Shown here: piece after piece, positions 6,326 through 53,210 of the stretch
Position numbering within the stretch: position 1 is the first letter of the stretch
Layout: the number at the start of each line of letters is the position of its first letter
Assembly (NCBI RefSeq): GCF_020991365.1
Contig: NZ_JAJLRA010000007.1
Coordinates: 62,001 to 126,000 of the forward strand
DNA from: Streptacidiphilus sp. ASG 303
Lineage (GTDB): Bacteria; Actinomycetota; Actinomycetes; Streptomycetales; Streptomycetaceae
DNA: 64,000 bases
Direction of reading: 5' to 3'
Notes under the pieces: generated by a model
The model's database searches: none
The model's input: only the letters and a program-made list of their open reading frames with translations
Told to the model about the DNA's origin: nothing
Made by a program: the position numbers and the translations under genes

Positions 6326-7869
6326 GGCCGGCGCCAGCTCCTGCCGTCTCGTGCGAGCATCTGGTCCGCCTCGGCCGGCCCCCAGGTGCCGGCCGCGTAC
6401 TCGGCCGGCCTGCCGTGCTTCTCCCAGTACTCCTCGATCGGGTCGAGGATCTTCCAGGAGAGCTCGACCTCCTGGTGGCGGGGGAAGAGGTTGGCGTCGC
6501 CGAGCAGCACGTCCAGGATCAGCCGCTCGTACGCCTCGGGGCTGGACTCGGTGAAGGACTCGCCGTAGGCGAAGTCCATGGTGACGTCGCGGACCTCCAT
6601 CGCGGTGCCCGGCACCTTGGAGCCGAACCGCACCGTGACGCCCTCGTCCGGCTGCACCCGGATGACCAGGGCGTTCTCGCCCAGCTCCTCCGTGGCGTAG
6701 GAGTCGAACGGCAGGTAGGGGGCGCGTTGGAAGACCACCGCGATCTCGGTGACGCGGCGGCCCAGCCGCTTGCCGGTCCGCAGGTAGAAGGGGACCCCGG
6801 CCCAGCGCCGGGTGTTGACCTCCAGCTTGACCGCGGCGTAGGTGTCGGTCTTGGACGAGGGGTCGATGCCGTCCTCCTCCAGGTACCCGATCACCTCCTC
6901 GCCGCCCTGCCAGCCGTGCGTGTACTGGCCGCGCACGGTGTGCTTGCCCAGGTCCTCGGGGAGCCTGACCGCGCCCAGGACCTTGATCTTCTCCGCCACC
7001 AGGGCGTCGGCCTCGAAGGAGGCCGGCTCCTCGATGGCGGTGAGGGCGAGCAGCTGCAGCAGGTGGTTCTGGATGACGTCGCGGGCGGAGCCGATGCCGT
7101 CGTAGTACCCGGCGCGGCCGCCGATGCCGATGTCCTCCGCCATGGTGATCTGCACGTGGTCGACGTACGACCGGTTCCAGATCGGCTCGAACATCGTGTT
7201 GGCGAAGCGCAGCGCCAGGATGTTCTGGACCGTCTCCTTGCCCAGGTAGTGGTCGATCCGGAAGACCTCGTGCGGCGGGAAGACCTCGTGGACGACCTTG
7301 TTCAGCTCCTGGGCGGAGGCGAGGTCGTGGCCGAACGGCTTCTCGATGACCGCGCGGCGCCAGGAGCCCTCCGGCGGGTCGGCCAGCCCGTGCTTCTTGA
7401 GCTGCTCGACGACCTTGGGGAAGAACTTCGGCGGCACGGACAGGTAGAAGGCGAAGTTGCCGCCCGTGCCCTGCGCCTTGTCCAGGTCCTCGATGGTGGA
7501 GCGCAGCGTGTCGAACGCCTCGTCGTCGTCGAACTCGCCGGGCACGAACCGCATGCCCTTGGCCAGCTGCTGCCAGACCTCCTCGCGGAAGGGGGTGCGG
7601 GCGTGCTCCTTCACGGCGTCGTGGACGACCTGCGCGAAGTCCTCGTCCGCCCAGTCGCGGCGGGCGAAGCCGACCAGGGAGAAGCCCGGGGGCAGCAGCC
7701 CCCGGTTCGCCAGGTCGTAGACCGCGGGCATGAGCTTCTTGCGCGACAGGTCGCCGGTGACGCCGAAGATGACCAGACCGGACGGGCCCGCGATGCGGGG
7801 GAGCCGCCGGTCCGCGGGGTCCCGCAGCGGGTTGCGCTGCGGGAGCCCGGCTGAATCTGACTTGCTCAC
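6322..7869 (-). CDS. zwf: Glucose-6-phosphate 1-dehydrogenase
   Basis: This 515-residue enzyme oxidises glucose 6-phosphate with NADP and opens the pentose phosphate pathway. The dinucleotide-binding start is LVIFGVTGDLSRKKLMP near residue 32, and the active-site signature FRIDHYLGKETVQN holds the substrate-binding HYLGK. The C-terminal domain has the usual VRFGSKVPGTAMEVRDVTMD and EAYERLILDVLLGD blocks. The start is GTG at 7869. A short GGGG/CCCC inverted repeat lies immediately upstream in the leader. The stop overlaps the opcA start as ATGA. The tal gene lies 42 bases upstream and is probably in the same transcript. Confidence 0.97.
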   Translation of the reverse strand: MSKSDSAGLPQRNPLRDPADRRLPRIAGPSGLVIFGVTGDLSRKKLMPAVYDLANRGLLPPGFSLVGFARRDWADEDFAQVVHDAVKEHARTPFREEVWQQLAKGMRFVPGEFDDDEAFDTLRSTIEDLDKAQGTGGNFAFYLSVPPKFFPKVVEQLKKHGLADPPEGSWRRAVIEKPFGHDLASAQELNKVVHEVFPPHEVFRIDHYLGKETVQNILALRFANTMFEPIWNRSYVDHVQITMAEDIGIGGRAGYYDGIGSARDVIQNHLLQLLALTAIEEPASFEADALVAEKIKVLGAVRLPEDLGKHTVRGQYTHGWQGGEEVIGYLEEDGIDPSSKTDTYAAVKLEVNTRRWAGVPFYLRTGKRLGRRVTEIAVVFQRAPYLPFDSYATEELGENALVIRVQPDEGVTVRFGSKVPGTAMEVRDVTMDFAYGESFTESSPEAYERLILDVLLGDANLFPRHQEVELSWKILDPIEEYWEKHGRPAEYAAGTWGPAEADQMLARDGRSWRRP

Positions 7870-50995: not shown

Positions 50996-51938
50996 GTGAC
51001 GCGGGACGAGTTGATGGCGGCCCTGGCCAGGATGCGGCGGGCGCCGGTGCAGGGACGGCGCGCGCCGCACAAACCGCTGCTGGTGCTCTGGCTGCTGGGC
51101 CGGTACGCCGGGACGGGCAGCACGGCCGTTACGTACGACGAGGCCGATGTGCCCGTCAGCCGTCTCATCGACGACTTCGGGCCGCCAGCGCGGACCCGGC
51201 AGCGGGCGGCGATGCCTTTCGTCCACCTGGAACGCCGCCTGTGGGACCTGCGCGATGCCCGGGGGGAGCCCATCCCACCGACGGCCCCGGAGAGCGGCGC
51301 CGCGCTGCGCCGCAGCGGTGCCGTCGGCCGGCTGCGACCCGAGGCCGAGCGGCTGCTCGCCGAACGGGGCACTCTGGCAGCAGCTGCCCGGCTTCTGCTG
51401 GACCAGCACTTCACCCATGCCTTGGAGGGACCGGTCTGCGAAGCCGCCGGGCTTGACCTGTCCGCCCTGGAACTGGAGGCCGCCGTCCAGCTCCTGCCAG
51501 GACAGCGAACCCGCCGGTCTCGCCGATCGGGCTTCGCCGAGGAGGTCCTGCGTGCCTACGCGTACTCCTGCGCCATATGCGGCTACGACGGGGCGCTCGG
51601 CCACCACCCCGTCGGACTGGAGGCCGCCCACGTCCGCTGGCACAGCCAGGACGGGCCCGACACGCTGGACAACGCCCTGGCCCTCTGCGCCCTCCACCAC
51701 GCCCTGTTCGACCTGGGCGTACTGGCTGTTCGACCTGGGCGTACTGGGCCTCACCGAGGACCTGCGCGTCCGCGTCTCCGGCCTCTACACGGCCCGCAGC
51801 GGGGCCGGGCGTGCCGTCGACATCCTCCAGGACCGTCCCCTCGCCCGGCCCCGGCCCGGTCTGCCCCGTACGGCGGAGACCTTCGTGCGCTGGCACACCG
51901 CCCAGGTCTTCAAGCACACGGCGGCCCCGGCGGCCTGA
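50996..51938 (+). pseudogene. Frameshifted phosphorothioated-DNA-type HNH endonuclease gene
   Basis: The first frame begins GTG at 50996 and encodes an N-terminal sulfur-binding-type domain (RAPHKPLLVLWLLGRYAG, AAMPFVHLERRLWDLRDARG, LLLDQHFTHALEGPV). A C-terminal HNH domain follows, with C192/C195 (CAICGYDG), H212 (LEAAHVRW), N226 and H235 (LCALHHALFDLG). A 22-bp perfect tandem duplication (51704-51725, 51726-51747) then shifts the frame. The expected C-terminus (GLTEDLRVRVSGLYTARSGA to RWHTAQVFKHTAAPAA) continues in another frame to 51938. Deleting one copy restores exactly 307 codons including stop. As sequenced, translation would lose the last 63 residues and gain a foreign tail of about 140 residues to a stop at 52153, while the HNH residues remain. 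Similar McrA-like enzymes restrict phosphorothioate DNA. Confidence 0.88.
51704..51747 (+). repeat. 22-bp perfect tandem duplication inside the HNH gene
   Basis: Two identical adjacent 22-base copies, 51704-51725 and 51726-51747, each start CTGTTCGACC and end GTACTGG. The length is not a multiple of three, so it shifts the reading frame by one base. It is typical of replication slippage. Confidence 0.97.
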
Positions 51939-51944
51939 TCGGCA

Positions 51945-51981
51945 CGCGTCCCGGTCCCGCCGCCGTCGCCGACGGGACGCG
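51945..51981. terminator. Hairpin between the HNH gene and the aminotransferase gene
   Basis: CGCGTCCCG (51945-51953) pairs with CGGGACGCG (51973-51981), 9 bp with a 19-base loop, between convergent genes. Confidence 0.6.
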
Positions 51982-52001
51982 GGACGCGCGAGGCCGGCCC
52001 G

Positions 52002-53210
52002 TCAGGCCCCGGACGCCGCCTGCCAGGCGGCCTGCGCGGCCGCCTCCGCCGCCGCGGCGTCGGCCTTCAGGCCGAGGCCGTCCAGCGCCGCCGCGAGGGC
52101 GCGCAGCGAGGCCAGGACCGTCCCCCGCGAGGCCGCCGGGCCGTAGTGGTTGACCCGCAGCACCTCCCGTGCCAGGGCGCCGCCCGCGCCCTGCACCGGC
52201 ACCGCCGGGTCGCAGCGCAGCGCCGCCGCGGCCACCTCGCGGGCGTCCACGCCGTCCGGGGTGCGCAGCGTGGTGGCGACGGGGGCCGCGTCCTCGTCGC
52301 GGACCACGTAGCAGGAGAGCGTGCCCAGCGCCCGCACACCGGCCCGGACGGCGGCGGCCGCGGCCCGGTGGCGCCCCGTCACCGCGTCCAGGCCCTCGGC
52401 GTCGATGCGGTCCAGGGACGCCTCCAGGGCGAGCATCTCCAGCTGCGCGGGGGCGTGCGGCAGGGCGGTGCGCCCGGCGTCCGTCCAGCGCTCCTTCCAG
52501 TCCAGCAGCGAGAGGTAGGAGCGGCGGGGCGCCTGCGGGTTGGCGGCGATGCGCTCCCACGCCCGGGGGCTCACCGCGGCGGCGGAGACGCCCGCAGGTC
52601 CGCCCATCGCCTTCTGGCCGCCGATCACGCACAGGTCGACGCCCCACGCGTCGGTGAGCAGCGGCTCGGCCGCCACCGACGCCACCGCGTCCAGCATGAG
52701 CAGCGCGCCGTGCCCGCGGACGACGGCGCCGATCTCCGCCACCGGGTTGGTGTTGCCGGTCGCGGCCTCGGCGTGCACGAGGCTGACGAAGTCGGTCTCC
52801 GGCCGCTCCCGCAGCGCCTCGGCGACCTGCTCGGCGGAGACGGCGGTCTGGAACGGCACCGCCAGGTCCACCACCTCGGCGCCGCACGAGCGCAGCCAGC
52901 CGCCGAAGGTCTCGCCGTAGGGGCCGGTGACCACGTTGAGGGCGGTGCTGCCGGGCCGCACCGCGCCGCGGATGCACGCCTCCAGCGGCAGCAGCGCCTC
53001 GCCCTGGGTGACCACCACGTCGTTGCCGGTGCGCAGCAGGGCGGCGACGCGGTCCTCGATCTCCGCGAAGCGCCGTGCGGTGAGCGGCGGCAGGTCGAGC
53101 AGCGGGTGCCCGCCCGGCGCGGTCTCCTCGCGGGGGCGGTCGGAGCCCGACGGGGCGGGACCCCCGGCGGACAGGGGGCCGTCGGCGGACAGGGGGCGGT
53201 TCGCGGTCAC
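52002..53210 (-). CDS. Class V PLP-dependent aminotransferase
   Basis: This 402-residue enzyme of the alanine-glyoxylate / serine-pyruvate aminotransferase type has HPLLDLPPLTARRFAEIEDR at the domain start. TALNVVTGPYGETFGGWLRS follows, then SLVHAEAATGNTNPVAEIGA and the PLP region LLMLDAVASVAAEPLL. The Schiff-base lysine is in LCVIGGQKAMGGPAGVSAAA. The first 35 residues are a Gly/Pro/Ser-rich extension with a PLSADGPLSAGG repeat. The GTG at 53210 has GGAAGG 6 bases upstream. Substrates are not determined. It converges on the HNH gene and is divergent from an SGNH hydrolase gene. Confidence 0.87.
   Translation of the reverse strand: MTANRPLSADGPLSAGGPAPSGSDRPREETAPGGHPLLDLPPLTARRFAEIEDRVAALLRTGNDVVVTQGEALLPLEACIRGAVRPGSTALNVVTGPYGETFGGWLRSCGAEVVDLAVPFQTAVSAEQVAEALRERPETDFVSLVHAEAATGNTNPVAEIGAVVRGHGALLMLDAVASVAAEPLLTDAWGVDLCVIGGQKAMGGPAGVSAAAVSPRAWERIAANPQAPRRSYLSLLDWKERWTDAGRTALPHAPAQLEMLALEASLDRIDAEGLDAVTGRHRAAAAAVRAGVRALGTLSCYVVRDEDAAPVATTLRTPDGVDAREVAAAALRCDPAVPVQGAGGALAREVLRVNHYGPAASRGTVLASLRALAAALDGLGLKADAAAAEAAAQAAWQAASGA

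What the first reader, a model, noticed from the sequence alone, without database searches (positions are those of the whole stretch)
50996..51938. McrA-like phosphorothioate-type restriction gene frameshifted by a perfect 22-bp tandem duplication
The two identical copies (51704-51725, 51726-51747) shift the frame just after the last HNH residue. Removing one copy restores an exact 306-residue product that ends in the conserved-looking tail, so the event is recent and reversible by slippage. The SBD-type domain and the HNH residues (H212, N226, H235) precede the shift, so the altered protein (about 385 residues with a foreign tail) may keep some activity. A slippage switch for a self-threatening, modification-dependent nuclease would be a new type of phase variation in actinomycetes. 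A sequencing or assembly error is less likely because the duplication is long and perfect.
Basis: partly seen in the sequence, partly recalled or inferred. Interest (0 to 1): 0.82.

Follow-up and report, generated by a model that had tools for sequence, protein, structure and literature searches.

The report
Broken sulfur-DNA restriction gene in Streptomycetaceae
A bacterial gene for an enzyme that probably cuts sulfur-marked foreign DNA has been knocked out of frame by a short, apparently recent copy-paste mutation; it looks like ordinary gene damage, with no sign that it is an evolved on/off switch.

Summary
Two perfect 22-bp copies (51704-51725, 51726-51747) lie in an SBD-HNH, phosphorothioate-type (NF045808) restriction gene and shift its frame nine residues after H235. 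The lost C-terminal tail is conserved in 41 intact relatives, and its replacement is predicted unfolded. The event looks recent: the out-of-frame tail is no more diverged than intact tails. Of 132 perfect tandem duplications in 1.01 Mb of this genome, it is the only one scored as breaking a gene's frame, so a general assembly fault is not seen. The switch reading gains no support. None of the 126 matched loci that contain the site has a duplication there, the assembly holds no one-copy allele, and DndC and DndD are not found over cut-off. The duplication has no junction microhomology, which speaks against simple slippage as its origin. Relatives of this gene are broken in 12 of 58 resolved loci, by insertions, deletions and small indels. 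Best reading: a recent, in principle revertible, loss-of-function allele. Ordinary; raw reads are needed to exclude an assembly error.

The parts
50996..52153 (+). open reading frame as it stands: SBD-HNH protein with a foreign tail, 385 residues
   Evidence: NF045808 208.1 bits over residues 6-245
50996..51487 (+). sulfur-binding domain (residues 1-164), motifs HKP (25-27) and MPF (73-75)
   Evidence: motif positions; fold of intact relative L090 over model residues 3-164 matches 5zmo_A, Z 16.6, rmsd 2.8, 151 aligned
51569..51700 (+). HNH nuclease core, C192xxC195 ... H212, N226, C231xxH234 H235
   Evidence: Pfam HNH_2 33.9 bits; residues invariant in 42 sequences
51704..51725 (+). first copy of the 22-bp tandem duplication
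51726..51747 (+). second, identical copy
51747..51938 (+). original C-terminal tail, now out of frame (frame of TGA 51936-51938)
   Evidence: window 51735-51935 matches NF045808 positions 226-284 of 284, 33.2 bits; coding signal switches frame here

Best explanation
This is an SBD-HNH type IV (phosphorothioate-dependent type) restriction gene of a Streptomycetaceae genome, damaged recently by a single 22-bp tandem duplication. The duplication replaces the conserved last 63 residues with about 140 residues of Arg/Pro/Gly-rich sequence, so the product most likely does not work or works poorly. Shown: the duplication, the frame change, the identity of both halves, no visible decay of the lost tail, no DndC/DndD over cut-off, and no second allele in the assembly. 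Inferred: loss of function; origin as one chance event (possibly end fill-in and joining, since there is no junction microhomology); and that the copies could in principle recombine or slip back to one copy at low rate, as any direct repeat can, without this being an evolved switch.
For: Both halves match NF045808 in two frames. Of the 66 loci, 46 have the core open and the tail in frame with it. The tail holds invariant residues in 41 of these 46 that were aligned (G247, S257, L273, W295, H296, V300, K302 in L090 numbering). AlphaFold gives the intact tail strands and two helices with 10-residue pLDDT means of 68-81, falling to 53 in the last block; the foreign tail has almost no secondary structure and means of 32-67 from residue 241 on. 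The window's tail-minus-core identity difference is -0.116 against a mean of -0.115 (s.d. 0.039) for 39 intact relatives, with 19 of 39 below it, so no decay is visible. It is the only frame-breaking one of 132 perfect tandem duplications scored in 1.01 Mb. Damage to this gene is seen elsewhere: 12 of 58 resolved loci.
Against: No reads and no second strain: an assembly error cannot be excluded. H212, N226, H235 and the whole SBD are upstream of the shift, so residual binding or nicking is possible. The tail's pLDDT in the intact relative is only moderate, the HNH core of that model is lower still (means 45-68), and low pLDDT of a tail without aligned relatives is to be expected for any such sequence. 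The frame scoring is crude: 45 of 132 repeats had coding signal on one side only. No control gene was examined for the damage rate.
Confidence: 0.77

Rival explanations
1. Sequencing or assembly artefact: two sequence ends that overlap by 22 bases were joined without merging the overlap, and the gene is intact in the cell.
For: The repeat run is exactly one period (22 of 22), as an unmerged overlap would give. The lost tail shows no decay. The genome is a 200-contig draft.
Against: A systematic joining fault should break other genes; none of the other 131 perfect tandem duplications in 1.01 Mb is scored as a frame break caused by its period. A 44-bp region is short enough for ordinary short reads to span (general knowledge). 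The locus lies inside a 262,732-bp contig. No alternative one-copy contig is in the assembly.
Confidence: 0.13
2. Evolved slippage phase switch that turns the nuclease on and off.
For: A perfect direct repeat inside the ORF with a non-triplet period is in principle reversible. Spontaneous duplications inside pneumococcal capsule genes that control phase variation are cited in PMC4022640 (passages). Two dndC-bearing genomes of the family (G107, G275) have only partial NF045808 matches, as selection for OFF would predict, though 11 of 25 have full ones.
Against: No tandem copies at this site in the 126 of 141 scanned loci that contain it, some genomes counted more than once. No trace of a one-copy allele in the assembly. 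No junction microhomology. No DndC and no DndD over cut-off to make OFF useful. Damaged relatives are broken by other kinds of change.
Confidence: 0.05
3. The frameshifted 385-residue protein is still a working nuclease, perhaps with altered specificity.
For: SBD and the H-N-H residues are complete upstream of the shift. L115 (Streptomyces sp. CNQ085) has an independent frameshift in the same tail with the core open.
Against: Tail residues are invariant in 41 intact relatives. The new tail is predicted unfolded.
Confidence: 0.05

Closest known systems
NF045808 PT-DNA_restrict: SBD-HNH phosphorothioate-dependent endonucleases such as SprMcrA and EcoWI (PMC7461809, passages)
   Same: SBD then HNH, CxxC/CxxH zinc motif, H-N-H triad, KP...PF sulfur-pocket motif; SBD fold matches SprMcrA SBD 7ccd_B (Z 16.3) (on relative L090)
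   Different: C-terminal tail out of frame; Met in place of the pocket Tyr (MPF for YPF). PMC6224610 (passages) reports that Y164M strengthened PT-DNA binding in ScoMcrA-SBD.
ScoMcrA (Sco4631), SBD-SRA-HNH type IV enzyme (PMC3009677, PMC6224610, passages)
   Same: SBD fold (5zmo_A, Z 16.6, on relative L090) and the H508/N522/H531 HNH spacing (14 and 9 residues)
   Different: No SRA family among the Pfam matches of the window gene; 306 residues in the one-copy reading, shorter than ScoMcrA, whose HNH residues alone reach position 531
Duplication-driven phase variation of pneumococcal capsule genes (Waite 2001, 2003, seen only as citations in PMC4022640)
   Same: Spontaneous duplication inside an ORF that could in principle be lost again
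   Different: Phase variation is reported there according to the cited titles; here neither reversion nor a second allele is seen

Membership tests
SBD-HNH PT-dependent restriction endonuclease (NF045808) | score over the curated family cut-off (180 bits) | tested here: met
   207.8 bits for residues 1-243 alone; 208.1 for the ORF as it stands
SBD-HNH PT-dependent restriction endonuclease (NF045808) | sulfur-binding domain fold | tested here: met
   tested on intact relative L090 (70% identical over the core), not on the window protein: Z 16.6 to 5zmo_A, 16.3 to 7ccd_B
SBD-HNH PT-dependent restriction endonuclease (NF045808) | pocket residues H, K/R and P (H116, R117, P165 of ScoMcrA) | tested here: met
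   H25, K26, P74 by motif position; H25 and P74 invariant, K26 at least 90% in 42 sequences; residue equivalence to ScoMcrA taken from motif, not from a computed alignment
SBD-HNH PT-dependent restriction endonuclease (NF045808) | H-N-H triad and CxxC/CxxH | tested here: met
   C192, C195, H212, N226, C231, H234, H235 invariant in 42 sequences
SBD-HNH PT-dependent restriction endonuclease (NF045808) | complete in-frame C-terminal tail (profile 226-284) | tested here: not met
   tail in another frame; so a damaged member
SBD-HNH PT-dependent restriction endonuclease (NF045808) | cuts PT-DNA | not testable with these tools
   needs an assay
phase-variable gene switched by tandem-repeat slippage | frame-changing direct repeat inside the ORF | tested here: met
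phase-variable gene switched by tandem-repeat slippage | repeat tract kept at the same place in relatives | tested here: not met
   0 of the 126 matched loci that contain the site (of 141 scanned) have tandem copies there; no strain of the same species was available
phase-variable gene switched by tandem-repeat slippage | both lengths present in a population | tested here: inconclusive
   one-copy junction absent from the assembly with up to 2 mismatches; reads not available
nuclease kept OFF because the host makes PT-DNA | dnd modification genes in the genome | tested here: not met
   DndC 0 matches (the same model finds 25 of 394 family genomes over cut-off); DndD only a 58-position match at 29 bits, cut-off 245.85 (no positive control seen for DndD); Ssp genes not searched in the whole genome

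The most novel reading that the evidence does not exclude
The 22-bp duplication is a naturally revertible allele that flips at useful frequency, so the population keeps a mix of restricting and non-restricting cells. This would be a slippage-type phase variation of a type IV restriction gene in an actinomycete.
Probability: 0.05. Interest if true: 0.6.

Novelty: new member of a known kind. Interest (0 to 1): 0.2.

Why it matters
As it stands it is one more damaged copy of a PT-type restriction gene. Together with 12 damaged copies among 58 resolved relatives, it shows that this gene is lost by many routes (no control gene was examined, so not that it is lost unusually often). If the allele did revert, the strain would be a ready test of whether restriction of PT-DNA is varied within a population.

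Tried and rejected
Slippage switch: looked for tandem copies in 141 relative loci, 126 of which contain the site, and for a one-copy allele in the assembly; none. Self-threat by dnd: searched DndC and DndD; no match over cut-off. Across 394 family genomes, dndC carriers are not poor in the gene (11 of 25 against 103 of 369 over cut-off, Fisher p 0.11), so avoidance is not seen; two dndC carriers (G107, G275) have only partial matches.

A contig break inside the gene in Streptantibioticus ferralitis (L123/L067) was first suspected to be a mixed-allele junction. The two contig ends gave no overlap and both end in inserted sequence with matching outer ends (CTAGTAG / CTACTAG), so it is read as an insertion.

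Conserved neighbourhood: eight queries from around the gene gave no match at 1e-15 in loci L063-L148. The PAP2 query was translated in a wrong frame, so seven count; no positive control was printed, so this is weak. Solved structures by sequence: no match for the 243-residue part. The HNH part was barely tested by the fold comparison, which covers model residues 1-164. Plasmid and phage collections held only distant relatives: 11 plasmid records, all under 60% identity, and 1 phage record.

Corrections and dropped rows: one search counts L145 as contig-edge; its upstream flank is in fact held, so I count it as unresolved. Of the 12 loci called damaged, L148 was judged from match coordinates only; the transposase-like insert of L134 was judged by eye from its translation. 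Rows left out of the 66 before the 12-of-58 count: 3 cut by contig ends (L105, L125, L139), 1 unresolved (L145), 4 distant or of other architecture (L143, L144, L146, L147). Of 46 intact loci, 41 went into the alignments (5 with a later match start or lower identity left out), and 2 of these 41 could not be split by the motif.

Full report
What is there. At 51704-51747 the window holds two identical 22-bp copies head to tail. They lie in a gene that starts at GTG 50996. The part up to residue 243 matches NCBIfam NF045808 (phosphorothioated DNA-binding restriction endonuclease) over profile positions 3-228 of 284 with 207.8 bits (cut-off 180). The stretch 51735-51935, in another frame, matches positions 226-284 with 33.2 bits. 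Pfam HNH_2 is found in the first part. The ORF as it stands is 385 residues; the one-copy reading is 306. The frame departs at residue 244, nine residues after H235. In the genome (G000, 6.99 Mb, 200 contigs) the two NF045808 matches are the two halves of this one gene. Relatives in the same family group include contigs whose lengths equal those of named Streptomyces records (G014:C13 and NZ_JAPZVN010000011.1, 231,627 bases; G013:C1 and NZ_CP046907.1, 6,075,149 bases), so the source is inferred to be a Streptomycetaceae.

What the gene is. In 42 aligned sequences C192, C195, H212, N226, C231, H234 and H235 are invariant, as are H25 and P74 of the sulfur-binding motifs; K26 is at least 90% conserved. 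The AlphaFold model of an intact relative (L090) has a confident N-terminal domain that matches solved sulfur-binding domains of ScoMcrA (5zmo_A, Z 16.6, rmsd 2.8, 151 aligned), SprMcrA (7ccd_B, Z 16.3) and Hga (8h0l_B, Z 14.0), well above the next, unrelated row at Z 7.8. The window has Met73 where ScoMcrA has Tyr164. Passages of PMC6224610 state that Y164 is conserved in 7 of 23 homologues and that Y164M strengthened binding, so this is no mark against PT binding. The HNH spacing (14 and 9 residues) equals that of H508/N522/H531 named in the same paper. Neighbours are ordinary: a VTT-domain protein, a PAP2 phosphatase, a class V aminotransferase and a penicillinase-repressor-like protein.

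Is the tail needed? In 41 intact relatives the tail holds invariant residues, among them W295, H296, V300 and K302 (L090 numbering). In the L090 model it forms two strands and two helices with 10-residue pLDDT means of 68-81, falling to 53 in the last block; the HNH core of the same model is less sure (45-68). In the model of the frameshifted window product everything after residue 240 has almost no secondary structure and means of 32-67. A tail without aligned relatives would tend to score low in any case. Loss or strong impairment of function is the likely outcome; residual activity is not excluded.

Is it recent and is it real? For 39 intact relatives that could be split at the same motif, the tail is on average 0.115 less identical than the core (s.d. 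0.039). The window's out-of-frame tail shows 0.116, with 19 of 39 below it. No decay is visible. In 1.01 Mb of the same genome there are 132 perfect tandem duplications of period 12 or more, 78 of period 15 or more; Markov copies of 0.47 Mb gave none of period 15 or more. By codon-usage scoring of 150 bases on each side, 74 of 132 have no coding signal on either side, 45 on one side, 10 lie inside genes with the same frame on both sides, and 3 have coding signal in different frames on the two sides. Of these 3, two have period 18, which cannot shift a frame; the third is this one. The scoring is crude, but a general assembly fault that breaks genes is not seen. Density of such repeats (period 15 or more) is 77 per Mb here, against 70 in G013, 40 in G049, 22 and 20 in the same-genus G001 and G002, and 10 in G057, from samples of 0.10-0.40 Mb each, and 24 in 0.74 Mb of the loci. 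So this genome is at the high end but not alone.

How did it arise? The run of matching bases at distance 22 is exactly 22, so the two ends share no further bases. Of 78 repeats of period 15 or more in this genome, 5 have this property. Slippage between short direct repeats would normally leave such a trace (general knowledge). Filling in and joining of staggered ends is possible (inference). An imperfect inverted repeat (16-nt arms, 75% complementary) spans the first copy; whether it matters is unknown.

Is it a switch? A scan of the gene region in 141 relative loci (from; some genomes counted more than once), of which 126 contain the site, found tandem copies of 10 bp or more in three, none at this site. 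The one-copy junction, with up to two mismatches, is nowhere in the assembly. The proposed driver is missing: DndC has no match in the genome and DndD only a short sub-cut-off match. The 14 control genomes hold no DndC over cut-off, but the same model finds 25 of 394 family genomes, so it can detect the gene. Ssp genes were not searched in the whole genome. Of the 25, 11 also have NF045808 over cut-off, against 103 of 369 without DndC (Fisher p 0.11); two more (G107, G275) have only partial matches, which by themselves would suit selection for loss. Overall there is no sign that the gene is generally avoided in dnd carriers. PMC3009677 passages report that ScoMcrA and dndA-E cannot coexist in one host; PMC7461809 passages report under 3.6% of predicted PT-dependent enzymes possibly near dnd clusters and list reasons for coexistence.

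How often is the gene broken elsewhere? Of the 66 loci, 46 are intact by rule (match from residue 26 or earlier to 240 or later, no stop inside, tail in frame) and 12 are damaged. Three are cut by contig ends (L105, L125, L139), one is unresolved (L145) and four are distant. Of the 12 damaged, three carry an insertion (L123, L133, L134), three a frameshift only (L115, L132, L138) and six a deletion or truncation (L101, L135, L140, L141, L142, L148; L141 and L142 also shifted). Some are MAGs or drafts and may include errors. No control gene was examined, so I do not claim a raised loss rate.

Precedent. Passages of PMC4022640 report short tandem duplication in the pneumococcal wchA gene, cite spontaneous duplications within capsule genes that control phase variation, and put the expected reversion of its candidates, with insertions of at most 9 bp, at no more than about 1e-5. 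Reversible duplications inside ORFs are therefore a known kind. One search for a Streptomyces case (2 papers hold all five terms; listing and abstract starts seen only) did not show one; this is a small search.

Verdict. A real sequence feature, correctly described, best read as a recent chance loss-of-function allele of a known type of restriction gene. The switch idea is possible but unsupported.

Noticed in passing
394 Streptomycetaceae-group genomes: 11 of 25 dndC-bearing genomes also carry an NF045808 gene over cut-off, all 11 listed as nearly full length without stops; the four held as loci (L034, L035, L043, L057) keep the H-N-H residues. This sits oddly with the reported incompatibility of ScoMcrA and dnd and could be a question of sequence specificity.
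   Followed up: partly
own genome, 1.01 Mb sampled: Dense perfect tandem duplications of 12-36 bp (132 in 1.01 Mb, 74 of them with no coding signal on either side): 77 per Mb of period 15 or more against 10-70 per Mb in samples of five other genomes of the family.
   Followed up: partly
L133 6492-6682 (Streptomyces barkulensis): The gene is interrupted by a short insert flanked by an inverted repeat (32-nt arms, 84% complementary, 127 nt between) with a second one inside it: looks like a small non-coding mobile element.
   Followed up: partly
L123 end and L067 start (Streptantibioticus ferralitis): Gene split across two contigs, both ending in inserted sequence with CTAGTAG / CTACTAG ends: insertion inside the HNH part.
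   Followed up: partly
L115 about 6690-6900 (Streptomyces sp. CNQ085): An independent frameshift in the same tail leads into the same alternative frame, again leaving SBD and HNH open with a long foreign tail.
   Followed up: no
window 52002-53150, minus strand: Class V aminotransferase next door gives weak partial matches to SspA and DndA cysteine desulfurase models (54.4 and 52.3 bits), but its best NCBIfam match is pyridoxamine-pyruvate transaminase, below cut-off (270.3 of 600); read as an ordinary aminotransferase.
   Followed up: yes
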